From positions 80,008,862 to 80,072,861 of the forward strand of contig NC_080584.1 in assembly GCF_029962835.1 (NCBI RefSeq): a DNA stretch of 64,000 nucleotides. The letters are read 5' to 3'. Both the position numbers and the translations under genes were made by a program. Origin of the DNA: Magnolia sinica (taxonomy: Eukaryota; Streptophyta; Magnoliopsida; Magnoliales; Magnoliaceae). Under the pieces are notes generated by a model. The model did no database searches, was not told where the DNA came from, and was given only the letters and a program-made list of their open reading frames with translations. Shown piece after piece: positions 11,591-62,290 of this stretch. Position 1 is the stretch's first letter, and every line of letters starts with the position of its first letter.

Positions 11591-11900
11591 CTAATCAGGA
11601 CCTTATTGTGTGAGGCCCACTTTGATAATTGTTCTCTTATATCCACAACGTCCATTCATTTTTCCAGCTCATTTTAAGATGTGATCCCAAAACTTAAGCA
11701 TAACTAAATCTTAGGTGGACCACAACATTGGAAATAATGGCGAATGACCATTAAAAACTTATTGTGGGCCACAAGCTTTGGATCAAGCTTATATTTATAT
11801 TTTCCTATCATCTAGGCTGGTTGGCCATCAATGGGTTGGATGGAAAGGAAACATTATAGTGGGCTTATATTTATATTTTCCTATCATATAGGTCGGTTGG

Positions 11901-12611
11901 TGACGCAGGGGAGGACGTGAGGTCGAGCACCGTCTTCCTCAAGAGGATAACTATTCCGAATCCACGGAACTTCTCTGGACTCCTCACAGAGACTTCTCGA
12001 ATCCACGAGGAAAGAAAGCAGAAAATAGAAATAAATTCTAATAAATTCAAAATTGATTGATGAATTATCAAAAACGAGTTCACAACCCTTTAAATAAGGT
12101 TACCAAGCAATGGGAAAGAAATTAGAATCAAACTACAACTCAAACTCCTAGAATCCATGACTTACTATTACTATTTATAGACGGTCGTGATGTCTACTAG
12201 TGCGCGAGGTTTTCGGCCAAAAATAGTAAGTGTCCTATTTGGCTTCACCAAACCGTTCTCCTAATTATTCTAAGCTCTTTTCACGTTGGGCGCAACTCCT
12301 AAAGCCTGACGGATGAAGAGTTATAATCAAACTAAAACTTACTATTTATAGTAAAAACAAAATTAAAACAGGGAAACGACCATCGATTAAGGGGTTTTTC
12401 GCAATTCCGGGCTGCGCAACCCGATGTAGCGGGTTGGTTGGCTAAAGTAGCTCGTTCTACCCCAAAATCATATATTTTACGTCAGATAACTCATTCTGGA
12501 TTGCAAGATACGCCCGATCTAAGGTCCGATGGTCCGGATCACTTCTATCGTCGACCGGGCCTTTTCTGATCCATCTTGGCCATGAAACTGTCTGCGACCC
12601 GCTCTACATCA
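11901..12611 (+). mobile_element. Solo LTR, family S1, copy 2
   Basis: 711-bp unit from TGACGCAGGG to TCTACATCA, closely similar throughout to the copy at 7916-8617. Flanks are GTTGG (11896-11900) and CTTGG (12612-12616), a 5-bp target duplication with one mismatch. The interrupted sequence TTGGCCATCAATGGGTTGG is present unbroken at about 11820, showing what the empty site looked like. Confidence 0.85.
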
Positions 12612-12830
12612 CTTGGCCATCAATGGGTTGGATGGAAAGGAAACATTATGGTGGGCATTAGTGCGGGCCCCAGGAAGTTTTTAATGGTGGGCATTCAATT
12701 ACCACTATTTTTGGTGGTGTGGTCCACTTGAGATTTGGATTTGTTTTAAGACCACGTTCTAACATGGGCTAGAAAAATGGATGGATGACATGGATAAACA
12801 ATATGTCATTAAACTGTTCGCCCATACTAA

Positions 12831-13461: not shown

Positions 13462-13499
13462 TAAGGTGTTACTCGGGTAACACCTAATCTGCTCTCTTA

Positions 13500-14060
13500 A
13501 CTAGAGATAGAGGGTCTAATCAGGGGCTTTGTGGAGCCCACGGTGATGTATATGTTTTATCCACACCGTGATGTATATGTTTTATCCACACGTCCATCTC
13601 ATTTTGACAGATCGTTTTACGTACCCATGAGCTCTGAAAGGAGGTAGATCGGAGGTTCAAATGGACCACACCACAGGAAACAATGTGGATTAATGAAAGC
13701 TTATGGTTGAAAATTTTCTAGGTCCACTGATGTTTTGGATCAAGCTGATATTTATGTTTTCCCTCCATCCAGGTCTACGTGAGTTTGTGACCTTATGGAC
13801 ACGTTGATGGCAAATAAACATAACCACGGCCCCAGGAAGTTATAAAATGTAGGAGTTCAATTCCCAATGCTTCACGTGGTGTGGTTCAATAGAGTCTTGA
13901 TGTGCACCTTTTTAAGTTCATGCCCTCAAATGATCTTGCAAAAATAAAATAAAATGGATTGCGTGGATAAATCATATATATCACTGCGCGCCCACAAAGC
14001 CCCTGAATGGACTGTACATTTCTAGCTAAGGTCCTGATTGGGGTGGTACCCAATCTGCCC
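13500..14060. repeat. GGGCCCACC fold-back element
   Basis: The left arm has GGGGCTTTGTGGAGCCCAC followed by GTGATGTATATGTTTTATCC twice in tandem (about 13541-13590). The right arm ends GCGCCCACAAAGCCCC and continues GGTCCTGATTGGGGTGGTAC. The arms are inverted copies, including the copy-specific GGGGCTTTGTGG / CCACAAAGCCCC segment. Confidence 0.7.
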
Positions 14061-14670
14061 CTATGGTCCACTGTGATGTGTGCTTGACATTCAATCCATT
14101 CATAATGCACGCCCTTTCATCTTCTCCTCGCCACCCAAAAATCAGGCCATTCAACTTAGGTGGGCAAGACCGTGTAAAACCATTTATCCAGTGTGGCCCA
14201 CCTAAGTTTTGGAACGGCATAAATTTTTAGGAGTCCATTAATCCTCAGGAGTAGCACCGTGGGAATGGATTAGATGGCATATGCAAAAGACGGTAGATCC
14301 CCTCACAATCTGGAAGGTTTTTGATGGTAGGGTCCCCATCCCAGCTCCATGTGTTGTGGCCCACCAGAGTTATTTAGATCCATCTGAATTTGAAGCACCA
14401 AGGAGAACATGCAGTGAAGCATGCGATGATCGGATGTCATGTACACATCACGATGGCCCCACTCATTGCATTATAGGTTAATTGACAAAGCATTCTAATG
14501 GATAAGTGGCATCAAAATGGACAACCCAAGTCTTTGTTATTTTTAAATAAAGAAGTAGCCCATTTATATGCCACTAAACTCAAGGGTGAGGATCGTGTGA
14601 TCAATACACATTTGCATTGTGGCCCAGTGAGCGTAGATTGTGTGGGGTACTACTTGGGGTGTTCATTCAG
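14035..14670. repeat. GGGCCCACC fold-back element, diverged core
   Basis: Inverted ends GGGGTGGTACCCAATCTGCC (14040) and TGTGGGGTACTACTTGGGG (14640) enclose a core with TGGCCCACCTAAGTTTTGG and a right-arm ATCAATACACATTTGC. It abuts the preceding and following units, so the outer ends are partly shared. Confidence 0.55.
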
Positions 14671-15024
14671 GGAGCAGATCTCTATGCCCAGAGCTGTGTG
14701 GGGCCACAGAAATGTCCATGAAAAATCCTCTCTGGCCATCTGTTTTTAAAGACCATAATAGGATTCTAAAACTAAGGTAGATCCAAAACTCATGCGGGCC
14801 ATACCATATGAAACAGTGGGGATCAAACACCTGGCCACAAAAGACTTTTTGTATCAGGATAGTAGTGGTAATAATTCTATGAACGGTTTGGATGACTATA
14901 CACATCATGGTCAGCGCCAGGGGTTTCCATGGTGGACGTTGTTGTTTTCACTTTTTTGTTAGGATGGCCCACTTGAGATTTGTATCTTCCTGATTTTTAG
15001 AATCATATCCTACTGTGGTCTTTT

Positions 15025-16068: not shown

Positions 16069-16214
16069 CTTTCAACACAGATAGCCAGATTGGATTTGTC
16101 AAGGAAATCTCCATGGACCCACACTACTGTGGGAACAGATTTCTCACTGTGCCCCCGTGTCAAGGCAATAAATAGGCTCTCTTCCATTCACGTACCTCAC
16201 CTCATATGGGAATT

Positions 16215-16715
16215 AGCCGCTGTGGCTTTATTAGCTATTGAAGTGACGTCACTAAGTTGGACCCTTATCCACACCAACTATCCATTTGGTGAGATCATTT
16301 CAGGACATGAGCCTAAAAATGAGGAGATCCAAAGCTCAAGTGGACCCATTAGGAAAAAAAAAAACAAAGACGCTGATGCCGACCATTGATTAAACCTTAC
16401 TAGGGCACATCATGTTGTTTATTTAAGATTCAATTTATTCATAAGTTCACGCAGACACGGATACAGGGAAAACACAAATATCAGCTTGATCGATAACTTA
16501 TGTGACCATGAAGAAGTTTTTAATGATAGGCATTCAATCTCCACTTTTCTACGTTCACTTGAGCTTTGGATCTGCTTCATTCTTTGGCCCACGCCATAGA
16601 TGGAAGGTGTAGATACAATATATACATCAAACACATACACTATGGTGGGCCCACATAACTCGGTGACGTCACTTTATATAACTAATGAAGCCGTCAGTAG
16701 CTAATCCGCGTCCCG
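16215..16715. repeat. GGGCCCACC fold-back element just upstream of the PPR gene
   Basis: Outer arms AAGTGACGTCACTAAGTTGG (about 16240) and CTCGGTGACGTCACTTTAT (about 16656) are inverted copies. The right end continues CAGTAGCTAATCCGCGTCCC, the outer terminus common to the family. The element lies about 110 bp upstream of the PPR start codon, so it probably overlaps the PPR promoter or 5' leader. Both arms contain the palindrome TGACGTCA, identical to the consensus site of CRE/bZIP-type factors; any regulatory role is speculative. Confidence 0.7.
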
Positions 16716-16827
16716 TTACCTCATTCCATATATATGGTCAATCCCCTCTCTCTCACATGCAACCGTTGCGAAATGGGCCCTGGTTCTTGATGAGGCGCAC
16801 GTAAAACTAAAATCAGAGGATTACAAG

Positions 16828-18405
16828 ATGCACTGCTTGTTAAGGCCCACCTACCCGATCAAACCCAAATCAATCCCATATTTCCCGGCTAAATCCATAC
16901 ACATTCCACGCCTAAACCCCACTTCTCTCTCTTCTTATCTGCAAGATCACATCAATTCAAATTCCCCTTCAAACGGGCAAAAGATCCACTCTCACATCCT
17001 AAAAATCGGATTCAAACCCAACACCAACATCTCCATCAAACTCCTTATTCTACATCTTAAATCAGGTTGCCTATCCTATGCACGCCGCGTGTTCGATGAG
17101 ATGCCCAAACCAACCACATCTGCTTATAACTATATGTTAGCTGGCTACTCCAAGCACGGCCAAGAGCAAGAATCCCTTGATCTAATCCGAAAAATGGCTG
17201 CTTCGACAGAAAAACCAGATGGGTTCTCGTTTTCGATGATGCTAAAGCTCTCTGCGTCGTTACTCTTGCTGGATCTTGGGAAATCAGTTCATACCCAAAT
17301 AACGAAACTGGATTTCGAGTCGGATGATGTTCTCTTCACTGCTCTTGTCGATTCTTATGCGAAGAATGGGAAGATTGATTATGCAAGAAGGGTGTATGAT
17401 AAAATGTCTGAGAGAAACGTGATCTGTTCTACTGCAATGATTTCCGGATACATGAAACATGGATCTGTTACAATTGCTGAAGAGATTTTTGAGAAAACGA
17501 TCGAGAAAGATACAGTGGTCTTTAATGCAATGATAGAAGGTTATAGCAAAACGATCGAAACTGCCAATAGAGCTCTAGAAGTCTATATAGATATGCAGCG
17601 GTTAGATTTTCGGCCAACAATCTCAACCTTCTCAAGCATCATTGGTGCTTGCTCTATCTTGTCAGCATTTGAAATCGGTCAACAAGTTCACAGTCAACTC
17701 ATGAAGACTGATAGTTTCAGCGATGTGAAGCTGGGAAGTGCGCTTGTAGACATGTATTCAAAATGTGGGAGAATTGTGGATGCGCGGAGGATCTTCAACC
17801 ACATGCCAGAAAGGAATGTTGTCTCGTGGACTTCCATGATTGACGGGTACGGCAAGAATGGGAGTCCAAGTGACGCACTCCAACTCTTTGACAAGATGCG
17901 TAGGGAGAACAAAACCAAACCCAATTATGTTACTTTCCTTAGCGCTCTATCGGCTTGCGGACACTCTGGATTGATATCGACCGGATGGGAGATTTTCAAT
18001 AGCATGGAGAGGGACTACTCACTCAAACCGAGGATGGAGCACTATGCTTGCATGGTTGATCTTCTGGGACGTGCGGGGAGCTTGCATCAAGCACTGGATT
18101 TCATTACGAAAATGCCAGAGAGGCCGGACTCTGACGTATGGGGGGCATTGCTCAGCGCTTGTAGGTTGCATGGGGATGTGGAGATGGCAGGATTGGCAGC
18201 GAATGAGCTTTTTAAGCTGAGTAGAGATGGGAGGCCAGGGGCTTATGTTGCTCTGTCTAATACATTTGCAGCTGCTGGGAGATGGGAAGGTGTTAGTCAA
18301 GTGAGGGGATTAATGAAGGAGAGGGGAGTTTCTAAAGATGCTGGGTGCAGCTGGGTTGGGACTGATAGTGGTTTGTGTGGTTTTCATGTTGGCAAAGGAA
18401 TGTGA
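16828..18405 (+). CDS. Pentatricopeptide repeat (PLS/E-type) protein, At1g28690-like
   Basis: Intronless gene for a 525-aa PPR protein. PPR proteins bind organellar RNA one base per repeat and act in editing, splicing or stabilisation. About ten PPR-like units run from residue ~45 (GQKIHSHILKIGFKPN) to ~500, with typical signatures ALVDMYSKCGRIVDARRIF, NVVSWTSMIDGYGKNG, YVTFLSALSACGHSGL and MEHYACMVDLLGRAGSLHQA. After the last repeats comes an E-like tail (DSDVWGALLSACRLHGDVEM, then PGAYVALSNTFAAAGRWEGV). No DYW deaminase domain follows, so it is probably not an editing enzyme by itself. From memory the order and wording fit Arabidopsis At1g28690, annotated as mitochondrial. The N-terminus is basic and proline/serine-rich, compatible with a targeting peptide. 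The start is the first ATG of the frame. No neighbouring gene is linked functionally. Confidence 0.93.
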   Translation: MHCLLRPTYPIKPKSIPYFPAKSIHIPRLNPTSLSSYLQDHINSNSPSNGQKIHSHILKIGFKPNTNISIKLLILHLKSGCLSYARRVFDEMPKPTTSAYNYMLAGYSKHGQEQESLDLIRKMAASTEKPDGFSFSMMLKLSASLLLLDLGKSVHTQITKLDFESDDVLFTALVDSYAKNGKIDYARRVYDKMSERNVICSTAMISGYMKHGSVTIAEEIFEKTIEKDTVVFNAMIEGYSKTIETANRALEVYIDMQRLDFRPTISTFSSIIGACSILSAFEIGQQVHSQLMKTDSFSDVKLGSALVDMYSKCGRIVDARRIFNHMPERNVVSWTSMIDGYGKNGSPSDALQLFDKMRRENKTKPNYVTFLSALSACGHSGLISTGWEIFNSMERDYSLKPRMEHYACMVDLLGRAGSLHQALDFITKMPERPDSDVWGALLSACRLHGDVEMAGLAANELFKLSRDGRPGAYVALSNTFAAAGRWEGVSQVRGLMKERGVSKDAGCSWVGTDSGLCGFHVGKGM

Positions 18406-32859: not shown

Positions 32860-33265
32860 AATGGTGACTACCTCGGGTGCATTCTTGCGAAAGCTCCTGC
32901 ATTGGGAACCTATGTGGGGGCCCACCATGATGTTTTTGATAAATCCACCGTGTCCATCTGTGTAAAAATGTGAGAATTGAACGTCCCACATAATTTTTGA
33001 ATCAGGTTAGTATATTTGTTTTCAGTTCATCCCATTATGAATGGTATAAATGGCATGTAACCATCAATGTCGACCCTTGGGAGTTTTCAACGGTAGGAAT
33101 TTCCCTACCCACCTTTTCCTTTACTGTGGCACACTTAAGTCTTGGATCTGGCTTATTTTTGGTCTCTTATCCTAAAATGAGCTCAAAAAGCAGAAGGATG
33201 TTGTGGATTTATCAAAAACATCATGGTGGGCCCCACAATGGTTCCCAGCGCAGGAAATTACTGCT
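32860..33265. repeat. GGGCCCACC fold-back element, short interior
   Basis: The arms GGGGGCCCACCATGATGTTT (32916) and AACATCATGGTGGGCCCCAC (33218) are inverted, with the copy-specific GCATTGGGAACC segment matching GGTTCCCAGCGC on the right. The interior retains GTTTTCAACGGTAGG-type words. Confidence 0.7.
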
Positions 33266-33274
33266 AAAGCGTGA

Positions 33275-33835
33275 AATCCGCGTCCGATTGGGTATTACGG
33301 ACGCTGATTTCCTTCTAAAAGCCTTCCACAAGGAGTTTCTGCGCAAGGATGTTGGGTGGGATCCACTGGAATGTATGTGAGAAATCCATTCCGTCCATCC
33401 ATTTTTCGAGCTCATTTTAGGACATTCAAAAAAAAATGAGGTGGATACAAAACTCAAATGGATCACACGAGGGAAAATTAAGAAAAAAAAGTTCATACAG
33501 TTGAAACTTTGTTAGGCTCCACCTTGATGTTTATATGCTATCCAAACCCTTTATAAGGTTATTACCAATTGGATGAAGTGAAAACACCTAAAATATAGCT
33601 TGATACAAAACTTTTATGGTCATAAAATGCTTCAACGGTGCTCACTGAATGCCCAATGTTTCCTCTTATGGCACACTAAAGTGTTTGATAAACTTCAACT
33701 TTAGTCATTCGTCCCTAAATGACCTCACAAAATGGATAGACCGGGTGGATTTCTCAAAAACATCTCGATGGACCCCACCCAAGATCATTGGGTAGGATGT
33801 TGGTGCGAAAGGCTTCCGTAGGACGCGGATTTGCT
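33275..33835. repeat. GGGCCCACC fold-back element
   Basis: The left arm, with GGATGTTGGGTGGGATCCAC (33348), pairs with the right-arm ATCTCGATGGACCCCACCC and ATTGGGTAGGATGTTG near 33760-33800. Outer segments TTACGGACGC and TTCCGTAGGACGC are related. Copy-specific arm words again agree left to right. Confidence 0.6.
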
Positions 33836-34435
33836 ATGACAGGTTGGGTAGCAAGCGCGGATTAGATATGACAGGTTGAGTAGCGAGACTGGCTGCTAAA
33901 GTGACGTCACCAAGTTCCATGGGCCCCACCATGGTATATGTTTTCGTATCTACACCTTCCATCCATTTAGAGACATCATTTTAGGGAAATATCCGAAGAA
34001 TGAGTTAAATCCAGAGCTCCAGTGGACCCCAGCACAGAAAACAGTGTGGATAGTGATGCCTACCATTAAAAACTTCTAAAGGCCACAAAAGTTTTAGATC
34101 AAGCTGATATTTGTGTTTTCTCTTATTTCATGTCTTTTTAAACTTTTGAACATGTTAGATTTTAAATAAACATTATGGTGGGCCTTAAGATAGTTTCAAC
34201 GGTGGGAATCACTCTCCCCACTGATTTCTGTGGTGGGGTCCATTATAGATTTTTATCTGCCTCATTCTTTGGCTCATGACTTAAAATGATGTCTCAAAAT
34301 GGATGGACGATGTGGATAAAACACATACATCATAGTGGGGCCCACAGAACCTGGTGACGTCACTTGAGTAGTCGACTCGCTACTCTCGACTACTCAACTT
34401 GTCAGTATCTAATTTGCGTCCGGAACTGACAAGGT
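33830..34435. repeat. GGGCCCACC fold-back element, well preserved
   Basis: The left end GGACGCGGATTTGCTATGAC is followed by a near-duplicate GCGCGGATTAGATATGACAG and GTTGAGTAGCGAG. The right end is the inverse: CTCGCTACTCTCGACTACTC, then AACTTGTCAGTATC and TAATTTGCGTCC. Inner arms TGACGTCACCAAGTTCCATG and CAGAACCTGGTGACGTCAC also pair. This is the clearest copy for defining the family terminus. Confidence 0.8.
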
Positions 34436-34687
34436 AGTGAGATTCTAGTGAAGTGACGCCACCAAGTTCTATGGGCTCACTGTGTAGAGCTAGGCATTTC
34501 ATACTCGAACTAGTGGATTCCGCCCAATCAGACCCGATTCGAACAAAACCGATGGTCAGGATCGGTCAAGATTGGATAGCATAATCCAAATCTGAATGAT
34601 TTTCGGTTTGAATCTGGATAGGCCCTGTTTCGAACCGACCCGATTTGATTTGGATCCGATTCGGACCATATATATATATATATATAT

Positions 34688-35236
34688 GGGAAAAGGTACT
34701 ATGCGCTTGACCTCATGATAAGCTCCCGTGAGGTCGAGCTGTGTGGGCCCTATTGTGATGTGTGTCGACCATCAACACCGTGCATTTGATGGGTCCCCTC
34801 TAATTTATGGGATATCCCAAAAATCAGCCATATACGGAACTCAGGTGGGCCATACCATCTAAAATCACGTGAAGACACCGTTAAAACATATAAAAGCACT
34901 TGGTGGGGCCCACATGAGTTTTGAATGGTGCTGAAACTTGGTCTGAACCCTCATCCAAGTGGGACACACATAATGGATGGGCTGGATTTGCAAACCACAT
35001 CTCGGTGGGCCCAAAAAATGATTATGAATGTTTTAATGGTGCATGGCCCCTCCCCACTTCTGTATGTGGTGTGGCCCACACAAGTCACGGATTGACTTGA
35101 TTTTTGAGAACTAGGCCCACGATGGAATGGTGCATTTGACTGATGGGGTAGATGTTTGAAATGCATTACGGTGGGACTCACACAGCTCGACCTCATGGGA
35201 CGGACTCGTGAGGTTGAGCGCATAGTACCTTTTCCC
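34688..35236. mobile_element. Non-autonomous element with GGGAAAAGGTACTATGCGC termini
   Basis: 31-bp inverted termini: GGGAAAAGGTACTATGCGCT on the left and its inverse AGCGCATAGTACCTTTTCCC on the right. The subterminal TTGACCTCATGA / TCGTGAGGTTGA pair extends the match. The interior has fold-back type words (GTGGGGCCCACATGAGTTTT). It sits in a TA microsatellite, so the target duplication (TA or longer) cannot be read. 549 bp, no transposase. Confidence 0.8.
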
Positions 35237-35309
35237 TATATATATACCTGAGCCTGTCAACTCTATCTTTTTATCTCTCTATATCTGTATCTCTCTCTTT
35301 ATATCTGTC

Positions 35310-36120: not shown

Positions 36121-37190
36121 TTGATACAACTCAGAGCTTGAGGAGCGTTAGTGCGTGTGTGAGATTTGAGAGAGAGCGAGAGTTTGGTGGACACGCGCCT
36201 TTCACCTCGGGAGATGGGTCCACCTGTTTTTTAAAAAAGTAACATGTAGGTGGCTGTGAGCTACACGTGTGTTGGTGAACAAGTATAGTGGTGTGGATTT
36301 TGCTAACGTGGATGGAAATATTGAGTGTGTGAGATCTAGACTTTCCATCACGTCGGTCAGACTTTGTTTTACCTTTACCTCATATTTTTATTACCATAAA
36401 ATGATCTAGAAAATAGGTGGATAGCATGAATGAAATGAATATATCGCAGTGGGGCCTACAGCACACCGACAACCAGCATTGGCTAGTGGCACGGGGAGCA
36501 ACGAATCCGTCTTCTTACCGACTACGTTCCACTGCCTCGAGCAGTGAGCTCGCTAACACCGGCGGATTTTAAGGGAAAGCCTTTCACGCGAGCGCGAGAT
36601 GCTATGTGGGTCCCACCGTAATGTTTGTGATAAATCCATACCGTTCATCCGTTTTAGGAGATTATTTTAGGACATGCGTAAGTTTCCATTTCTATTTCCG
36701 TACCCCAGATGCCATTGATGAATATGTGGAGGAGCCACGTCGACTCTTGAAACGGTGGGATACTCGTAAATGGCACCCGTCATTTCCGGATAAGTGGAGC
36801 AAATACGTTATTTGTCCTTCCTAAAGCCGCATCTCCACCATACGCATTTTCAATTTGCCACTGATATGAGGCAGCACAAAAAAAAAAAAAAAAAGGTTTT
36901 GCCATGAGCATGTCTTTGAAGACCATTGATCAGGTGGTGACTGTGTTTAGAGTGTGTTCTATGATTTTCAGAAGATTTACACTGGACCCTCTAATTTAGA
37001 CGGTTTGGATTGGAATACACATATGACATATGCACATCGGCATAGTGCATGCGTACAATTATTTATACTCCGCCGGTGTATCAAAGAACTCCTTTAATAG
37101 GTTTTGAATCATCCCATTGCATGTCGCAGAAAATATTGAAAAAATCTATACGTTATTATATTGTCAGATGCACCACGCACCAGCTCAGCT
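36121..37190. other. Non-genic, fold-back fragments
   Basis: Contains isolated fold-back words (GTGGGTCCCACCGTAATG at about 36605, GTGGGGCCTACAGCACACCG at about 36451) and an A-run at 36877-36894. No gene. The frame at 36606-36824 starts inside such a fragment. Confidence 0.4.
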
Positions 37191-37590
37191 GGTTCCGGGT
37201 GTTGCCGTCAGCAAGTTCTTTGGGTCCATCATGAGGTATGTATCATATCTAAACGTACATCCACTTGGCGGGCTCGTCTTAAGGCTTGAGCTGAAAAATA
37301 AGATAAATTTAAGTATCAAGTGGACTATACTGCAAAAAGCAGCTGGGATTGAAAGTCTACCATTGAAACTCTTTTAGGGTCAAGACGGTTTTATCCGAAC
37401 CCTATGTGACCCGATTTGACTCGGTTTTTGTGATCAAGTCGGGTATGGTTTGGGTCAGGCCAGCAGTACAACAGGTCGGGTCGAGTTAGAGGACCTGGAC
37501 ACGGTCCCGGATTCGATCAAGTTCGGCCAGGCATTGAGAAGTTCGGACCAAGTCGAGTAGGGGCCAATCCGGTCCGACTCGACTCGATGC
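37190..37590. repeat. Partial fold-back element plus GGTCGGGTC-rich repeat
   Basis: 37195-37375 is a left half only (AAGTTCTTTGGGTCCATCAT, then the usual GGCTTGAGCTGAAAAATAAG). 37380-37590 is rich in GGTCGGGTC / GACTCGG words, like the hAT-type repeats. The frame 37117-37377 is spurious. Confidence 0.45.
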
Positions 37591-37594
37591 CCAC

Positions 37595-38100
37595 CTCTAT
37601 CACTATGATGTATGTGGGCCCCACTATAATGTATGTGCTTTATCTACACTGTTTATCTATTTGGAGATATAATTTTAGGGCATGAGTTAAAGAATAATGC
37701 AGATCCAAATATGTAGTTGACCCACTACGGAACAACCAGTGGAGAGATTGATGCCCACCGTTGAAACCTTCCTAAGGCTCACCATGATTTTTATTTGAAA
37801 TCCAACCCATTCACAAGTTAACACCAACACAAAAGAAGGGAAAAAACAAATATCAGATTGATCAAATACTTTTGTGGCCTATGTAAGTTTTTAATGGTGG
37901 GCGTCACTCTACCCACTGTTTTATGTGGTGAGGTCCACTAGAGCTTTGGATTATTTAAAATTATCGTTCCAAACGGTTGGATGACATGGATACAAAACAT
38001 ACATCATGATGGGGCCCATAGAACTTGGTGACGTCACTTCAGTAGCGTTGCTCAACCTGTCACCACTCAACCTTCAGTATCCAATCCACGTCTGCGGAAA
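37595..38100. repeat. GGGCCCACC fold-back element
   Basis: The left arm GATGTATGTGGGCCCCACTA appears next to a partial repeat of itself. The right arm ACATACATCATGATGGGGCC is followed by CTTGGTGACGTCACTTCAGT and the terminus CAGTATCCAATCCACGTC. The interior has the complete family word set. Confidence 0.7.
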
Positions 38101-38580
38101 TGAATTGGCTACTCCCTGTCGGTGCTCCATGGGCCCATCATGATGTATGTGTTTCATCCATGCCGTCCATTTATGTTTTTAGATCATTTTATGATATGAG
38201 ATCATAAATGAGGTATATCTCAATCTCAAGTGAACCACATTACAGGAAAACAGTGTTGAATGAACGTCAACCATTAAAAACATTTTGGGGGCCATAAAAG
38301 TTTTGGATTAAGCTGATCTTTGTTTTTTCCATTCATCTGGGTCTATACGGCCTAATCAACAAATTGAATGCCAAATAAACAATACATTGGGCCTTAGGAG
38401 AATTTTAATGGTGGATATCCACTCACTATTGTTTTCCTGTGGTGTGGTCCACCTGAGATTTATATTCCTCTTATTTTTGGCATCAAGCCTAAAATGATCT
38501 TTAAAAAAGGATGAATGGAATGGATGAAACACATACATTATGGTGGGCTCAAAGAAGTGGCTCATGTTAAAAGTTGGGAT
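38100..38580. repeat. GGGCCCACC fold-back element
   Basis: Left arm GGGCCCATCATGATGTATG (38132) and right arm ACACATACATTATGGTGGGC (38529), with an interior typical of the family. It abuts the previous copy. Confidence 0.65.
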
Positions 38581-49500: not shown

Positions 49501-49865
49501 CTATGCGATGTAATCGCAAGTAGATCACATCACATAAAACAATGTTGATTGAACACGTACCATTAAAAACTACCTAAGGCCCACTGGAATTTTTATTAGC
49601 CATCCAAGTTGTTGATTAGGTCACACATCCCTTGATAAAGGAAAAACGCAAATATCAACTTCATCCAAAAAATTTGTGGCCCCCACAAGTTTTTAATGAA
49701 GCCGATCAATCACCACGACTTCCTGTGTCCAATTGAAATTTCGATCTCCCTCGGCTTTTGACTCTACCTAAAATAATAGCAAAATGAATGGATGGTACAG
49801 ATAAAACACATACATTATAGTGGGCCCATCGCGTGCCATCCAATTACTGACGGCCTTAATAGGCA
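49500..49865. repeat. GGGCCCACC fold-back element, left arm missing
   Basis: Core words (AACAATGTTGATTGAACACG, AAAAACGCAAATATCAACTT) lead to the right arm ACATACATTATAGTGGGCCC and the terminus GGCAATCCACGTCCC. Confidence 0.55.
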
Positions 49866-49869
49866 ATCC

Positions 49870-50345
49870 ACGTCCCTCATAGAGCATATTAGACACTGGC
49901 CTCGCCCAAGATGGTGTGGCCCTTACCGCTGGGTTACGGTGGACCCCACCTTGATGTATGTATTTTTCAGATTATTTTAGAGCATTATCAGAAAAATAAA
50001 GCATATCAAATTATCAGGTCGACCATACCATTAGAAACAATGGTGATTGACTGGTAATGAGCTTCAAAAGTTTTGGATGAAGCAGATTTTCTTTGTCCCT
50101 TCATCCAAGCTTACCTGACCATATCAATAGATTGGATGATAAATAAACAGTACTAAAATATTAAAGTGTGCCCTAAGAAGTTTTTAATGGTAGGATGGTC
50201 AATCACAACTGTTTCTTATGGTAAGGTCCACCTAATAATTTGATCTGCTTCATTTTTGGAAAAATGCCCAGAAATGATAACTGTTGAACTGCGTGGATAC
50301 ATGATACGTACATCAACGTGAGCCCTGCAGTAACCTTTGAGAGTG
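49870..50345. repeat. GGGCCCACC fold-back element, CTGGCCTCGC subtype
   Basis: The left arm CTGGCCTCGCCCAAGATGGT leads to GTGGACCCCACCTTGATGTA. The right arm GATACGTACATCAACGTGAG is followed by CCCTGCAGTAACCTTTGAG. The next copy follows without a gap. Confidence 0.65.
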
Positions 50346-50885
50346 GATCAAGTGAGACCCTGGCCTCACTCAGGACAGTGCAGCACTTACCGTGGGGCCC
50401 ACCTTGGTGTATGTATTTTATATCAGCACTGTTCATCCATTTTTTAGGATCTTTTTAGGATACAATCTCAAAACTGAAGCAGATCCAATTATCAGGTGAA
50501 CCATTTCATTGAAAACAATGGTGATTGACCATTAATGGACCACAAAATTTTTGGATCAAATTGATATTTTATTTTTCCCTTCATCCAAGCTTATGTGATC
50601 TTATCAACAAATTAGATGCAAAATAAACACAACGAAAACATTAAGGTGTGCCCTAAGAAATTTTTAATGATAAGGTGTTCAATCACCACCATTTCATATG
50701 GTATGGTCCAACTGAGAATTGGATCTGCATCATTTTTGGGATAATAACCTAAAATCATACAGAGAAACAGATGAGCAATGTGAATACAAAATAAATACAT
50801 TGGCATGAGTCGCACGGCAAGCCTGCACTGTCTTGAGTGGGGCCGGAGTCTCGCACCACCGCGCATGCGAGCGGATTAGGTACTA
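50345..50885. repeat. GGGCCCACC fold-back element, CTGGCCTCAC subtype
   Basis: The left arm GAGACCCTGGCCTCACTCAG leads to CTTACCGTGGGGCCCACC. The right arm AAGCCTGCACTGTCTTGAGT, GGGGCCGGAGTCTCGCACC is its inverse, including the copy-specific ACAGTGCAG / CTGCACTGT segment. The right end GCGGATTAGGTACTATCCC is the family terminus. Confidence 0.7.
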
Positions 50886-51480
50886 TCCCTGCCTGTTTGG
50901 AGCTCGGTCCATGGAGGTTTCAAGGGCCACTGAGCTGCCACTGTGATGTATGAACTTTATCCACACCGTCCATCCATTTTTTTCATGTTATTTTAGATTA
51001 TTATAACAAAAATAGAGAAGATTCAAGTCTCAAATGGGACACACGGTCAGAATTAAATTCCTACCATTGAAAAATTCTTAGGGACCACTAAAGTTTTGGA
51101 TCAGGATGGTATTTGTTTTTTCACTTCATCCTGGTGTATATGACCATGTCAACAGGTTGGATGGAAAATAAATGACATAGTAGTCCTAAGAAGGTTTCAA
51201 TGGTAGGCGTCCTTAGCAACTATGCTTCCTATGGTGTGGTCCATCTGAGCCATGGATCTGTCTTATTTTTGGTCTAATACTCTATAATGATATAGAAAAA
51301 GGGACGGACTGGATCTGTCTTATTTTTGGTCTAATACTCGATGATGATATAGAAAAAGGGACGGACAGTGTGAATAAAAATAAAACATCACGGTGGCTCC
51401 TCAGTGGCCCTCAGAGTCTCCTCCTGTCCCAAGCTTGGACAGCGGGTTAGTACCTAATCCACGCCGGGAGTATTAGGCGC
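50885..51480. repeat. GGGCCCACC fold-back element with 57-bp duplication
   Basis: The left arm GGTTTCAAGGGCCACTGAGC pairs with the right arm GGTGGCTCCTCAGTGGCCC. The right end is GTACCTAATCCACGCC. GGATCTGTCTTATTTTTGGT occurs at 51254 and 51311, a 57-bp tandem duplication that reaches GGGACGGAC. Confidence 0.7.
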
Positions 51481-52000
51481 AGATTAAGTACCACAACCAT
51501 GTTCAAGGTGGGGACAGCAGGGGCTTAGAGGGGCCACTGTTATGTATAGCTTTTATCTTCATTGTTCATCCATTTTTACATGTTCACCACCAGAAAAAAA
51601 AGAAAAAAAGAGTTCATCAAAGTCTCGAAAGGTCCACACCACATAAAGCAGGAGTACTGAGGACATCCACCATTGAAACCTTCTTAAGGCCCACTGTGTT
51701 GTTTATTTTCTGTCCAACGCGATGAAGTGGAAAAACAAATATTATCTTGATCCAAAACTTCTATAGTCCAAAAGAGTTTTTCAACGCTAGGAATTTTATC
51801 CCCACTATGTGGTCCACTTGAGTCTTGTATTTTCATTATTTTTTAGATTATGATTTAAAATGATATGAACAAAATGAATGGACAGTGTGGATGAAATCCA
51901 AGCATCACAGTGGCCCCTAACAGCCTTTCTCTCCCGAGCTAGGAACATGCGAAGGATAGTACCTAATCCGCGCCCTGTGCCAAACAGAGGATCCAGATTC
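51480..52000. repeat. GGGCCCACC fold-back element, AGGGGCC subtype
   Basis: Left end GGCGCAGATTAAGTACCACA, arm CAGGGGCTTAGAGGGGCCAC; right arm CAGTGGCCCCTAACAGCC and end GTACCTAATCCGCGCC. The core motif GGGCCCACC is replaced in both arms by GGGGCCACTG. Confidence 0.7.
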
Positions 52001-52839: not shown

Positions 52840-53445
52840 CTGATTCTGGGACGCTGATTGACCACCGACCCTGCCACTAGCCAATGGTTAGTGGTCGGTG
52901 CTCTGTGGGCCCCATCATGATATGTTTCATCCATGCGGTCCAACCGTTTTTCCAGATCATTTTATGGTATGAACCTAAAAATGAGGTATATTGAAATCTC
53001 AAGTGGACCACATCTCAGGAAAACGTGTTGATTGAAAGCTCACCGTTAAAAGGTTCTTTGGGCATAGAAGTTTTGGATCAAGCTGATATTTGTTTTTGTT
53101 TTTTTTCCCTTCATCCTGGTCTTTATGACCTAATCAACAGGTTAGATGTGAAATAAACATTACAGTGGGCATAATCACTAGGTTAGATGTGAAATAAACA
53201 TTACAGTGGGCAGTATAAGGATTTTAATGGTGGACATTCAGTCACCACTGTTTTCCTACGGTGTGGTTCGCCTGAGATTTAGATCTGGGTCATTTTTTGG
53301 ATTAAGAATTAAAATGATATTTAAAAATGGATGGACGGCGTGGATATAACAATAAATAATGGTGGGGCCCACAGAGCACCGACCACTCAGTAGCCACCTG
53401 GCTAGTGGCAGGGTCACTAGTCAAACCGCGCGCCTGGTTCGGAGT
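52840..53445. repeat. GGGCCCACC fold-back element, TGCCACTAGCC subtype
   Basis: Left end GGGACGCTGATTGACCACCG, ACCCTGCCACTAGCC, GTGGTCGGTGCTCTGTGGGC. The right side is the inverse: CCCACAGAGCACCGACCACT, GGCTAGTGGCAGGGTCACTA, GTCAAACCGCGCGCC. A 41-bp tandem duplication (GGTTAGATGTGAAATAAACA at 53140 and 53181) lies in the interior. Confidence 0.8.
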
Positions 53446-54148: not shown

Positions 54149-54846
54149 TAATAATGGTGGATTGGGTGAGACCCCGGACTCACCCTCAGACGGTGTGGCC
54201 ACTACCGTGGGGCTTACCTTGATGTATGTATTCTCTATCCGCACCGTCCATTAGTTTTTCCATATCATTTTATGGATTTATCCAAAAAATTAAGAAGATC
54301 CATTTGTTAGGTGGACCATACCATAGGAAAGAGTGGTGATTGAATGCTTTACCGTTAAAAACTTCTTAGGGCGACCTTTAATGTTTCTGCAGTGTTTGTT
54401 TGCCATCCAATCTGTTGACAGGGTCACGTAAGCGTGGATGAAGGGAACGACCTTTAATGTTTCTGCAGTGTTTGTTTGCCATCCAATCTGTTGATAGGGT
54501 CACGTAAGCGTGGATGAAGGGAAAAAAAAATATCACGCACACACACCCCTACACACTCAGGCCGTAGTGGGATTTCACCACCTATGGTACTCGAACCCTC
54601 GACCAGGTGTTGAAACTCCCGAGACTCTACAACTGGAGTACAAACAAATATCAGCTTGATACAAAATTTTTGTTGCTTATTAATGGTCAATCACCCCTGT
54701 ACGATATGACATGGTGCATCTGATAATTGGATCTGCTTCATTTTTTGAGATAACGACGTAAAATGATCTGAAATAAAGGATGGACTACGTGCATATAGAA
54801 TACACACATCAAAGTGGGGTCATGGTAAGGGTCGTACCTACTCGAG
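54149..54846. repeat. GGGCCCACC fold-back element, larger part; right end displaced to 63940-63985
   Basis: Left end GGATTGGGTGAGACCCCGGA, CTCACCCTCAGACGGTGTGG, CCGTGGGGCTTACC. The right arm runs to GGTAAGGGTCGTACCTACTC, where the copia element begins. The missing inverse of the left end (GGGTGAGTCCGGGGTCTTAC, CTAATCCGCC) is found beyond the 3' LTR. A 76-bp tandem duplication (CGACCTTTAATGTTTCTGC at 54372 and 54448) and a SINE lie inside. Confidence 0.75.
54531..54640 (-). mobile_element. tRNA-derived SINE
   Basis: On the minus strand: CTCCAGTTGTAGAGTCTCGG, GAGTTTCAACACCTGGTCGA, GGGTTCGAGTACC. The last contains a good RNA polymerase III B box (GGTTCGAGTNC). The unit ends in a GT-rich tail, GGGTGTGTGTGCGTGAT. 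It sits next to an A-run in the interior of a fold-back element whose own sequence (AACAAATATCAGCTTGAT) continues on the far side. A related fragment lies at 45061-45130. Confidence 0.6.
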
Positions 54847-59150: not shown

Positions 59151-59159
59151 TCATAAGAT

Positions 59160-62100
59160 ACTTTGTATGTAGGCGTTTGTTCTGAAATCCTTTCCGTTGA
59201 TTCTATATCTAACGAGTGGATTTTGGATTCAGGCGCAACAAAGCACGTGACACAGAGTCATCGAGGACTCGAGGAATTTCAGCCTGTAGCCAAAGGAAGT
59301 TACAAGCTGTACATGGGCAATAACGCTGTTGAAGACATACTAGGGATTGGCGTTCTCCATCTCCGTACGCGCATAGGGCAAACAATAATCCTTCATGATA
59401 CTCTTTTTGCACCGGGGATGCGTCGGAATTTAATTTCTATTTCTAGGTTATTATTTGATGGTTTTGATATTCGATTTTCTGGGACTAGAGTTTCTTTGAG
59501 ACAGAATAACCTCATCTTTGCATGGAGAAATTTAATTTCAGATTTATTTATTCTAGACGTAGATTGTGATAATGCCCATCTTGCTTTATCTACTATGTCG
59601 AATAAAAATGTAGTATCTGAATCTCAAAAATGGCACGCGAGGTTAGGTCACATCGGAAAAGATCGTATGACAAGACTAGTACGTTTTGGTCTGTTAGACT
59701 CCTTATCTAAAGTTGATTTGCCATTTTGTGAACATTGTGTGTCCGGGAAGACATCGAAGAAACCATTTCCCAAAGCGGCTAAGTCTAAGGGCACACTAGA
59801 GATAATCCATTCAGATATCTGTGGACCCTTTAATGTACATGCCAGAAACGGATGTCAATACTTTGTCACTTTCATTGACGATTACTCGCGCTATGGATAT
59901 GTGTATCTCATCTCACACAAATCTAAGGTTTTTGATTATTTTCTTAAATATAAAGCTGAGGTAGAAAATCAGCTTGAGAAAAAGATTAAAACCCTTCGAT
60001 CTGATAGAGGTGGCGAGTATACATCTGAAACGTTTAAATCATATTATGAAAACGTTAGAATTGTTCGGCAGTACACAATGGCTTACACTCCACAACAAAA
60101 CGGTGTTGCAGAGAGAAGGAATAGGACACTATTGGACATGGTTAGATTGATAATGGCACAAGCCAATCTCTCTACCATATTCTGGGAAGACGCACTGTTA
60201 ATAGCCGTCTACGTCCTTAATAGAGTCCCATCCAAATCCATTCCTAAGACTCCATATGAGATGTGGTCTAGGAGGCCTCCTTCTTTAGCCCACATACGCC
60301 CTTGGGGATCATTGGCATATGTTTTGCTACCTACTCAACATAGAGGTAAACTTGATAGTAAAACCATTGAATGCGGTTCATTAGGTACCCTATGCATTCA
60401 AAGGGATACGTTCTAATTTATGAGAACCATGGACGATGAATTGAGATAGAATCCCGAGACGTGACCTTCGTTGAAGATAGATATTCAAGCTGAATGAAGC
60501 AAAAGGTTCCAATAGAATTTTTTGAAATACCCGATGTATCTTAGGAGAGTAGGAGTTCTGCTCCTCAAGATGAAGATGCTCCTATAGTTCACCAGGACAG
60601 TGGGAGGACATCTCAGCAGGCTCCTGAGTTACGTCGAAGCGAAAGAGGATTGATTCCCCGAATATACTTCAATATTGAGGGACAAACATTCTCTTGCGTT
60701 GCAGTTGATGATGATGAACCTGATTCATATCAGGATGCATTATTATCTTCTAATTCGGCCGATTGGGTAAATGCTATGGACGAAGAGATCGCCTTCATAG
60801 AGAAGAATAAAGTCTGGGAACTTGTTGATCTGCCTTCCAATCGCAAAGCGATAGGTAATAAATGGGTACTTAAGATCAAAAGAAAGGCAGATGGTACAGT
60901 GGACAAGTATAAAGCACGATTAGTTGCTAAAGGTTTTACACAGCAAGAAGGCATTGATTACGAGGAGACCTTTTCACCTGTTGCAAAGTTCTCCTCAATC
61001 CGCATGATCTTGTCCATTGTCGCAAGTTTAAACTTAGAGTTATATCAGATGGATGTAAAGACCGCATTCTTAAATGGTGACTTGGATGAAGAGATATACA
61101 TGCAACAGCCCATGGGTTATGTGGACAAAAAGCATCCAAAGAAAGTCTGCAAGTTGTTAAAATCTATCTATGGGCTAAAGCAATCTTCAAGACAGTGGTA
61201 CATGAGGTTCCACTTGGCCATCACCACTTTTGGATTCACGATGAGTGAAGAAGATCATTGTGTATACATAAAACGGTCTGGAAGATCTTTTCTAATACTA
61301 TCTCTATATATAGACGATATCCTGTTAGCTGGTAATGACATGTAATTGTTAATATTGACTAAAGATTGGCTATTCTCGAACTTTGAGATGAAAGACCTCG
61401 GTGAAGCCAACTTTATTCTTGGGGTAAAAATCATCAGGGATCGCCCTAAGAAATTTTTAGGCTTGTCTCAAGCAACCTATATACAAAAGATCTTAGAGCG
61501 GTTCAGGATGGAAAATTCAAAAGCTGTTGAAACCCCTATGGATAAAGCTACCAAGCTAGACAGGAAATCGTGTCCCCAGACTGAAGCCGAGAAATTGGCT
61601 ATGTCCTCAGTACCTTATGCAAGTGCAGTAGGGAGCTTAATGTATGCTATGCTTTGCACCAGACCGGATATTAGCTATGCAGTTGGCATAGTCAGCCGTT
61701 ATCAGAGTAACCCGGGACAGTCTCATTGGCAAGCCGTCAAACGTATATTCCGCTATCTCAGAGAAACAAAAGACCTAATGTTATGTTATGAAGGAACAAG
61801 CCTCGAGCTCAATGGATATTCAGATGCTGCTTGGGGTAATGACGCCGACGAGGAAAAGTCTACTTCAGGATATGTATTCTTACTCGGAGGAGGAGCTATC
61901 TCATGGTCGAGTAAGAAACAGACATCCACAGCTCTTTCATCTATGGAGGCCGAGTACATTGCATGTTGTGTTGCAGTTCAGGAGTGTGTATGGGTTCGCA
62001 GATTTCTAATGAGTCTGGGTGTTGTACCGAGTGTTCGTCAGCCTATATCGCTGAAGATAGACAATACTTCTGCCATTGACTTGGCAAAGGACCCTAAACA

Positions 62101-62290
62101 CCACTAGAAATCTAAGCACATTGAGATCAAGTATCATTACGTCCGTGATCAAGTGAGAGATAAGAAGGTCGCCCTCAGCTACATTCCTACTAAGGAGATG
62201 ATGGCTGATCCCATGACGAAACCTATAGCTAGAGATCTATTTCAGGTTCACGTCAGGCAGATGGGATTGAGGAAAGCTTGACTGATGTAC
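59160..62290 (+). mobile_element. Copia pol region (PR-INT-RT-RH)
   Basis: Domains in order: aspartic protease with WILDSGATKHVT (about 59220-59420); GAG-pre-integrase with WHARLGHIGKDRM and CEHCVSGK (about 59630-59780); integrase core with HSDICGPF, FIDDYSRYGYVYL and YTPQQNGVAERRNR (about 59800-60330); reverse transcriptase with [19 protein letters not shown] and [11 protein letters not shown] (about 60800-61400); RNase H with GYSDAAWGNDADEEKSTSG and SSMEAEYIA (about 61800-62200). This order is diagnostic of Ty1/copia. Fossil copy, broken. Confidence 0.93.

What the first reader, a model, noticed from the sequence alone, without database searches (positions are those of the whole stretch)
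33830..34435. Fold-back family in which the two arms match each other but differ between copies
Between a shared outer end (about GGACGCGGATTAGGTAC) and a shared core (GGGCCCACC.TGATGTATGTG), each copy has a subterminal segment that is inverted-identical left to right but not shared with most other copies. Examples: TGACAGGTTGAGTAG in 33.8-34.4 kb, TGCCACTAGCC plus GGTCGGTGCTCTG in 52.8-53.4 kb, ACAGTGCAG in 50.3-50.9 kb, GGGGCTTTGTGG in 13.5-14.1 kb. Independent decay would erase this pairing. It suggests that one arm is templated from the other, for example through a hairpin intermediate or arm-to-arm gene conversion. That mechanism is an inference.
Basis: partly seen in the sequence, partly recalled or inferred. 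Interest (0 to 1): 0.7.

Follow-up and report, generated by a model that had tools for sequence, protein, structure and literature searches.

The report
Ordinary subfamilies of a plant transposon
The matched arms that look private to each copy are the inherited ends of separate, multi-copy subfamilies of one plant foldback transposon; copies do not rewrite one arm from the other, although the arms were probably matched once when each subfamily was founded.

Summary
Outside a shared palindromic core, ten of 23 window copies carry outer arms (12-66 bp) that match left to right but differ from most other copies. The inference that each copy templates one arm from the other fails. All five elements searched genome-wide have at least 39 further hits. 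In four subfamilies, subterminal left-right identity within a copy equals that between copies; for one (52903) only once nearest siblings are compared. Of 455 variants private to one copy, one is in both arms. After insertion the arms decay independently. The elements look like MULE-type foldback MITEs with 9-bp target-site duplications; no transposase was linked. A founder-level effect remains: arms group by subfamily, not by side, and in the three subfamilies compared, reconstructed outer arms are 91-100% alike within and unrelated between subfamilies. So both outer arms were replaced or matched once per subfamily, as reported for Drosophila Galileo; the mechanism is unproven. A good ordinary explanation with one modest open question.

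The parts
33821..34421 (+). Foldback element '33919' (the finding): outer arms about 33855-33918 and 34348-34421, palindromic core 33919-34347
   Evidence: 39 genome siblings at 87-90%
33821..33884 (+). 32-bp tandem duplication of the left terminal segment of element 33919
   Evidence: read; flanks
34420..34495 (+). Truncated further arm of the same subfamily abutting the right end of 33919
   Evidence: z 5-9 against five arms
13475..14062 (+). Element '13531' (GGGGCTTTGTGG arms); sibling arm at 21108R
16204..16713 (-). Element '16265', arms related to 33919
32879..33285 (.). Element '32917', short paired outer arm; orientation ambiguous
33299..33820 (-). Element '33356', weakly paired outer arms
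34688..35236 (.). Element '34742', terminus GGGAAAAGGTAC, in a (TA)n tract; orientation ambiguous
37613..38093 (-). Element '37613', core and right outer arm are siblings of 33919; paired left arm not found
38096..38550 (+). Element '38131', core sibling of 52903; paired right outer arm not found
49880..50327 (+). Element '49937', left outer arm sibling of 50390; left end uncertain
50340..50866 (+). Element '50390' (ACAGTGCAG arms); ends uncertain by a few bases
50867..51466 (+). Element '50938', sibling of 51530
51475..51975 (-). Element '51530', sibling of 50938
52848..53434 (+). Element '52903' (TGCCACTAGCC / GGTCGGTGCTCTG arms)

Best explanation
These are non-autonomous, Mutator-like (MULE-like) foldback MITEs. 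One ancient palindromic core is shared, and many subfamilies each carry their own pair of outer arms. Each subfamily spread from a founder whose two outer arms already matched; every copy inherited that matched pair and has since decayed independently in each arm, so left-right pairing inside a copy is simple inheritance (shown for four subfamilies). The arms look private only because a 64-kb window holds few members of each subfamily. When a subfamily was founded, both outer arms were replaced or made alike once, most likely by copying one arm onto the other through the palindromic core (gene conversion, or gap repair with template switching) or by renewed inverted duplication, with transposase recognition keeping the ends alike (inferred).
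For: Subterminal identity, within-copy L-R / between-copy L-R / same-arm L-L and R-R: 33919, 40 of 40 copies.833 / .830 / .878 and .871; 50390, 28 copies (30 of 40 given, two dropped).790 / .791 / .793 and .792; 34742, 30 of 40.786 / .789 / .953 and .964; 52903, 36 of 40.784 within.780 cross and .842 same-arm against the four copies nearest by core. Private variants in both arms versus one arm, counted where the two arm consensuses agree: 1/166, 0/124, 0/39, 0/125. Diagnostic L/R differences: 33919, 985 of 1200 cells keep both types, 86 carry one type in both arms, longest run 2, 0 of 40 copies with a run of 3; 34742, 1898 of 1950 keep both, 21 carry one type, longest run 1 (many of its 65 sites lie in the inner part where the arms hardly align). 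In all seven window sibling pairs same-arm identity exceeds within-copy identity (better of same-arm and cross-arm above within in 868-995 of 1000 bootstraps; pairs were chosen for similarity). Window copies: subterminal L-R identity .72 is like that of the adjacent core.76. Founder level: left and right arms as two lineages rejected (AU p 1.3e-7), per-copy arm pairs rejected (p .0075), per-subfamily clades accepted (p .71). Consensus outer arms of three subfamilies .91-1.00 within.50-.54 (shuffle level) between; core 0-100 .57-.78 between. 9-bp target-site duplications.
Against: 52903: over all 36 copies within .784 exceeds cross .754 and even right-right .755 (left-left .822), and the first 17 copies gave .823 against .788 (0 of 2000). 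The excess vanishes in the main type (.807 against .805, 11 copies) but five copies of a second type gave .841 against .812. The window's own 52903 has within .90 against same-arm .88 and cross .84 to its nearest copies, and 10 of 36 copies have within above same-arm; it carries one type in both arms at 11 of 28 diagnostic sites, longest run 2, and L108 and the second type do likewise. I read these as nested sub-types, not per-copy events. 50390 has a slight excess of variants shared by both arms of a copy (68 against 54.4, 80 of 5000; without C>T/G>A 22 against 13.1, 30 of 5000) and over all columns within .757 against .751 (28 of 2000). The milder per-copy constraint on three sibling pairs is rejected by AU (.027) but not by SH (.377). 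Per-subfamily clades were not recovered for 38131+52903 or 13531+21108. No transposase was linked to the family.
Confidence: 0.87

Rival explanations
1. Each copy, or each transposition event, templates one arm from the other (hairpin intermediate or arm-to-arm conversion).
For: Strong L-R pairing inside copies with little similarity to most other copies in the window; a small excess of shared variants in 50390; the window's own 52903 pairs slightly better within than with its nearest copies.
Against: 454 of 455 private variants are in one arm only; fixed left/right differences are retained through transposition in 33919 and 34742; within-copy L-R equals cross-copy L-R in 33919, 50390 and 34742, and in 52903 against nearest copies.
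Confidence: 0.04
2. Founder arms match because selection by the transposase keeps both ends alike: each subfamily adopted the ends of a different autonomous partner, without direct arm-to-arm copying.
For: Outer arms are wholly different between three subfamilies and paired within, while a core is shared; MULE TIRs hold transposase binding sites (PMC3310237, introduction read).
Against: The L-R match in the 50390 consensus runs over about 189 bp with one mismatch, well into the core, and the excess of within-copy similarity in window copies reaches core position 120; selection on binding sites alone would not be expected to make that identical.
Confidence: 0.3
3. A single perfect palindrome gave rise to all copies in one burst, and all arms have simply decayed since, with no matching per subfamily.
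For: Between window copies left-left, right-right and left-right core identities are nearly equal (.582.598.584).
Against: Within-copy identity exceeds between-copy identity after per-arm rates are fitted (residual -0.154, 0 of 2000); outer arms are unrelated between subfamilies; quartets favour copy pairing in 127 of 153; subfamily clades are supported.
Confidence: 0.05

Closest known systems
MuTAnT, foldback MULE family of Medicago truncatula (PMC4486113, passages read)
   Same: Short non-autonomous foldback elements, two subfamilies, 9-nt TSD; like the 34742 subfamily here, inserted in TA microsatellites
   Different: Its autonomous mudrA-like partner is known; here none was linked. No sequence comparison was made.
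Galileo of Drosophila (PMC3573991 and PMC4168063, passages read)
   Same: Foldback-like; TIRs are the most variable part; copies with one central region but TIR pairs of another subfamily; a foreign element in one TIR that became part of both
   Different: P superfamily with 7-bp TSD; here 9 bp
ISWpi1 of Wolbachia (PMC3004938, passages read)
   Same: Conversion between the TIRs of one element was shown
   Different: Bacterial IS with 23-bp TIRs; there it happened in single insertions, whereas single insertions here show next to none
Plant MULEs with long or tandem TIRs (PMC3310237, introduction and passages read)
   Same: 9-11 bp TSD, long TIRs, several TIR families, tandem TIRs (compare the tandem terminal duplication at 33821-33884)
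   Different: Those families were not compared by sequence here

Membership tests
Mutator superfamily (MULE) | 9-11 bp target-site duplication | tested here: met
   50390: 14 of 25 listed copies (28 examined) have 8 or 9 of 9 matching, ends allowed to shift by 2, no null run for this set. 33919: the 9 of 39 copies with exact termini gave 5 at 9/9, 2 at 8/9, 1 at 7/9, 1 at 3/9; 68 of 72 mismatched pairs had 0-4. 34742: 19 of 30 at 9/9 but in TA tracts, so uninformative. Window copies alone were inconclusive.
Mutator superfamily (MULE) | Long terminal inverted repeats (typically 100-500 bp) | tested here: met
   About 189 bp with one mismatch in the 50390 consensus; 189 of 221 columns in 33919. 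In 34742 the good match covers only about 94 bp.
Mutator superfamily (MULE) | mudrA-like transposase moving the family | not tested
   The PF10551 search of the genome did not complete. Of the six window frames of 130 aa or more, four hold PPR or Ty1/copia domains and two have no Pfam match.
MITE / foldback element | Short, non-coding, nearly all inverted repeat, high copy number | tested here: met
   About 500-600 bp; the reported copy folds as one stem (z -17.8); no stop-to-stop frame of 130 aa lies inside a window copy; thousands of first-look candidates in the genome, candidates rather than confirmed copies.
P superfamily (Galileo) | 7-8 bp target-site duplication | tested here: not met
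   9-bp duplications.

The most novel reading that the evidence does not exclude
New subfamilies are born when one end of the element acquires a wholly new outer arm that is then copied to the other end through the palindromic core, so the transposon repeatedly changes both ends at once while keeping its core.
Probability: 0.4. Interest if true: 0.5.

Novelty: new member of a known kind. Interest (0 to 1): 0.28.

Why it matters
It shows that matched arms that look private in a short window need no per-copy mechanism, and gives a simple test (private variants in one or both arms; left/right diagnostic sites) that should work for other foldback families. The founder-level pattern makes the birth of new terminal repeats testable: with many subfamilies sharing one core, the order and direction of outer-arm replacement could be read from this genome and its relatives.

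Tried and rejected
Scans of viral contigs and genome contigs for the core pattern found nothing. Rfam at gathering threshold and ARAGORN found nothing in the window. TSDs from window copies alone were unconvincing. Rate heterogeneity as the cause of the within-copy excess was rejected by fitting per-arm branch lengths. A short conversion tract in the window copy 52903 was considered (11 of 28 diagnostic sites with one type in both arms) and not accepted: the longest run is 2, the copy looks intermediate between sub-types, and L108 and the second type show similar patterns; it is not excluded for this one copy. Literature: the MULE paper came from the listing, Galileo and MuTAnT, ISWpi1; in the listings (titles and starts of abstracts seen) I saw no further paper on paired, subfamily-specific arms of a shared-core plant foldback. 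FARE (PMC1461375) is not held. The hairpin model of MITE amplification (Angel elements) and the Mu1/MuDR TIR pattern are recalled, not read.

Full report
What was checked. The window is plant DNA (a PPR frame at 16705-18405 and Ty1/copia frames at 59157-62107) lying at C12:80008862-80072861 of an unnamed 1.84-Gb assembly. An iterated profile search from the core of the reported copy gave 100 hits over both strands. From these I chose 23 bodies with both core arms present and left out partial ones (for example 2570-2957, 11610-12804, 14698-15021, 36374-36677, 37222-37401, 49514-49827, 54205-54820). The core is itself palindromic and reads well on both strands; orientation was set from the asymmetric centre for 18 copies and stayed ambiguous for five (3648, 14065, 22501, 32917, 34742).

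The observation. Outside the core, left and right flanks pair inside copies. Over 80 bp the summed pairing score is 571 against 329 on average for shuffled partners, never reached in 20,000 shuffles; 10 of 23 copies score 20 or more and 13 score 14 or less. But several arms are already shared inside the window: 33919 with 37613R (.73-.78), with 16265 (.58-.68) and with a stub; 13531R with 21108R (.72); 50390L with 49937L (.64, while 50390R with 49937L is not significant); 50938 with 51530R (.69-.73). For 52903 only about 22 inner bases are shared with 38131L. In the window copies subterminal L-R identity (.72) is no stronger than that of the adjacent core (.76).

The genome search answered for five elements: 33919, 50390, 34742, 13531 and 52903. 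For 13531, sibling bodies match at 71-77%, mostly from about query base 95 on, and 18 listed plus-strand pieces match the outer left arm (about query 29-100) at or beside those copies; its copies could not be cut out and were not analysed further. In the 33919 subfamily (window copy plus 39 of 39) subterminal identity is .833 within copies.830 between the left arm of one copy and the right arm of another.878 left-left and .871 right-right. In 50390 (29 of 39 other hits fetched; L060 and the window copy dropped for want of a recognised terminus, 28 copies left) all four numbers are .79. In 34742 (30 of 40) they are .786.789.953 and .964. In 52903 (36 of 40) they are .784.754.822 and .755 over all pairs, and .784 within.780 cross and .842 same-arm against the four copies nearest by core. 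Left-right likeness inside a copy is thus what close relatives in the subfamily show across copies.

Two sharper tests. First, a variant private to one copy should appear in both arms if arms template each other. Counted where the two arm consensuses agree, and pooled over four subfamilies, it does so once (50390) and is in one arm 454 times: 1/166, 0/124, 0/39 and 0/125. An earlier run on 17 copies of 52903 counted one two-arm variant in L114 (against 95 in one arm), which is no longer private among 36 copies. Second, where founder arms differ, copies made by templating would carry one type on both sides. In 33919 the 30 such sites keep the difference in 985 of 1200 cells; 86 cells carry one type on both sides, at most two in a row. 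In 34742 1898 of 1950 cells keep it and 21 carry one type, never two in a row, though many of its 65 sites lie where the arms hardly align. Hence in these subfamilies neither copies nor transposition events template one arm from the other. In 50390 a step at each transposition would be invisible because the founder arms were identical.

Results that lean the other way. 50390 has a slight excess of shared, non-private variants (68 against 54.4, 80 of 5000 shuffles; without C>T/G>A 22 against 13.1, 30 of 5000) and of overall within-copy identity (.757 against .751, 28 of 2000). 52903 first showed excess pairing (.823 against .788, 0 of 2000), and over all 36 copies within .784 lies above cross .754 and level with or above right-right .755. 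Inside its main type the excess is gone (.807 against .805, 11 copies), while five copies of a second type gave .841 against .812. The window's own 52903 has within .90, same-arm .88 and cross .84 to its nearest copies, and 10 of 36 copies have within above same-arm; it carries one type on both sides at 11 of 28 diagnostic sites, longest run 2. I read these as nested sub-types, each with its own matched founder; a local event in that one copy is not excluded.

The deeper level. Between the 18 clearly oriented window copies left-left, right-right and left-right core identities are nearly equal (.582.598.584), yet within-copy likeness is higher after fitting a branch length per arm (residual -0.154 for 23 copies, 0 of 2000 shuffles), in core 0-120 but not in core 120-165. 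Quartets favour pairing by copy in 127 of 153, by side in 19 and crossed in 7. In the tree of 23 copies, arms of 33919+37613 and of 3106+3648 form exclusive clades (support 96 and 98) in which left groups with left and right with right (98/98 and 97/97; the orientation label of 3648 is uncertain); 49937+50390 and 50938+51530 form exclusive clades (92, 91) with less clear inner order; 38131+52903 and 13531+21108 do not. Approximately unbiased tests on 19 copies reject an all-left against all-right split (p 1.3e-7) and per-copy arm pairs (p .0075.027 when demanded only for three sibling pairs, which the SH test does not reject.377), and accept per-subfamily clades for four pairs (p .71). In all seven sibling pairs looked at, same-arm identity exceeds within-copy identity. 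Consensus outer arms of 33919, 50390 and 34742 are 91-100% alike within and 50-54% (shuffle level) between subfamilies, while core 0-100 is 57-78% alike between them. The 50390 consensus has about 189 bp of inverted repeat with one mismatch. So arms became alike after subfamilies split and before copies spread: once per founder. How is inferred: arm-to-arm copying or renewed inverted duplication is most likely, with selection for matched ends as a partner or rival.

What it is. The 9-bp target-site duplications, long TIRs and foldback form fit a Mutator-like MITE; PMC3310237 gives 9-11 bp TSD and long TIRs as the mark of MULEs (introduction read). No transposase was linked, so membership rests on structure. 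The closest parallel for the founder effect is Galileo: copies whose TIRs come from one subfamily and centre from another (PMC3573991, passages), and a foreign element first in one TIR and then in both (PMC4168063, passages). TIR-to-TIR conversion is on record for ISWpi1 (PMC3004938, passages).

Verdict. A correct observation with an ordinary main explanation: subfamily inheritance plus independent decay. The residual, per-founder matching of wholly replaced outer arms, is of moderate interest and has precedents. On re-checking, counts were mended and the 52903 results against my reading were written out; for that reason confidence in the best explanation went from 0.88 to 0.87 and that of per-copy templating from 0.03 to 0.04.

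Noticed in passing
33285-33299, 33820-33821, 34421, 38093-38096, 50866-50867, 51466-51475; also C2:29050028-29051040: Copies abut end to end with about 0-13 bp between their termini (some ends uncertain by a few bases), more often than scattered insertion would suggest (no formal test); several neighbours are from different subfamilies.
   Followed up: partly
34677-35246; L078-L107: The 34742 subfamily (40 of 40 scored places; 39 others at 95-96%) sits in TA microsatellites: 16 of 30 copies are TA-rich over 20 bp on both sides, and by eye each of the 30 has a TA run beside at least one end; a young, target-specific group.
   Followed up: partly
13463-13484: The left outer end of element 13531 forms a small hairpin of its own (AGGTGTTAC .. 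GTAACACCT), read.
   Followed up: no
assembly as a whole: Nineteen large contigs (C1-C19, lengths) make up nearly all of 1.84 Gb; with this core repeat so abundant this recalls magnoliid genomes. Recall, not a test.
   Followed up: no
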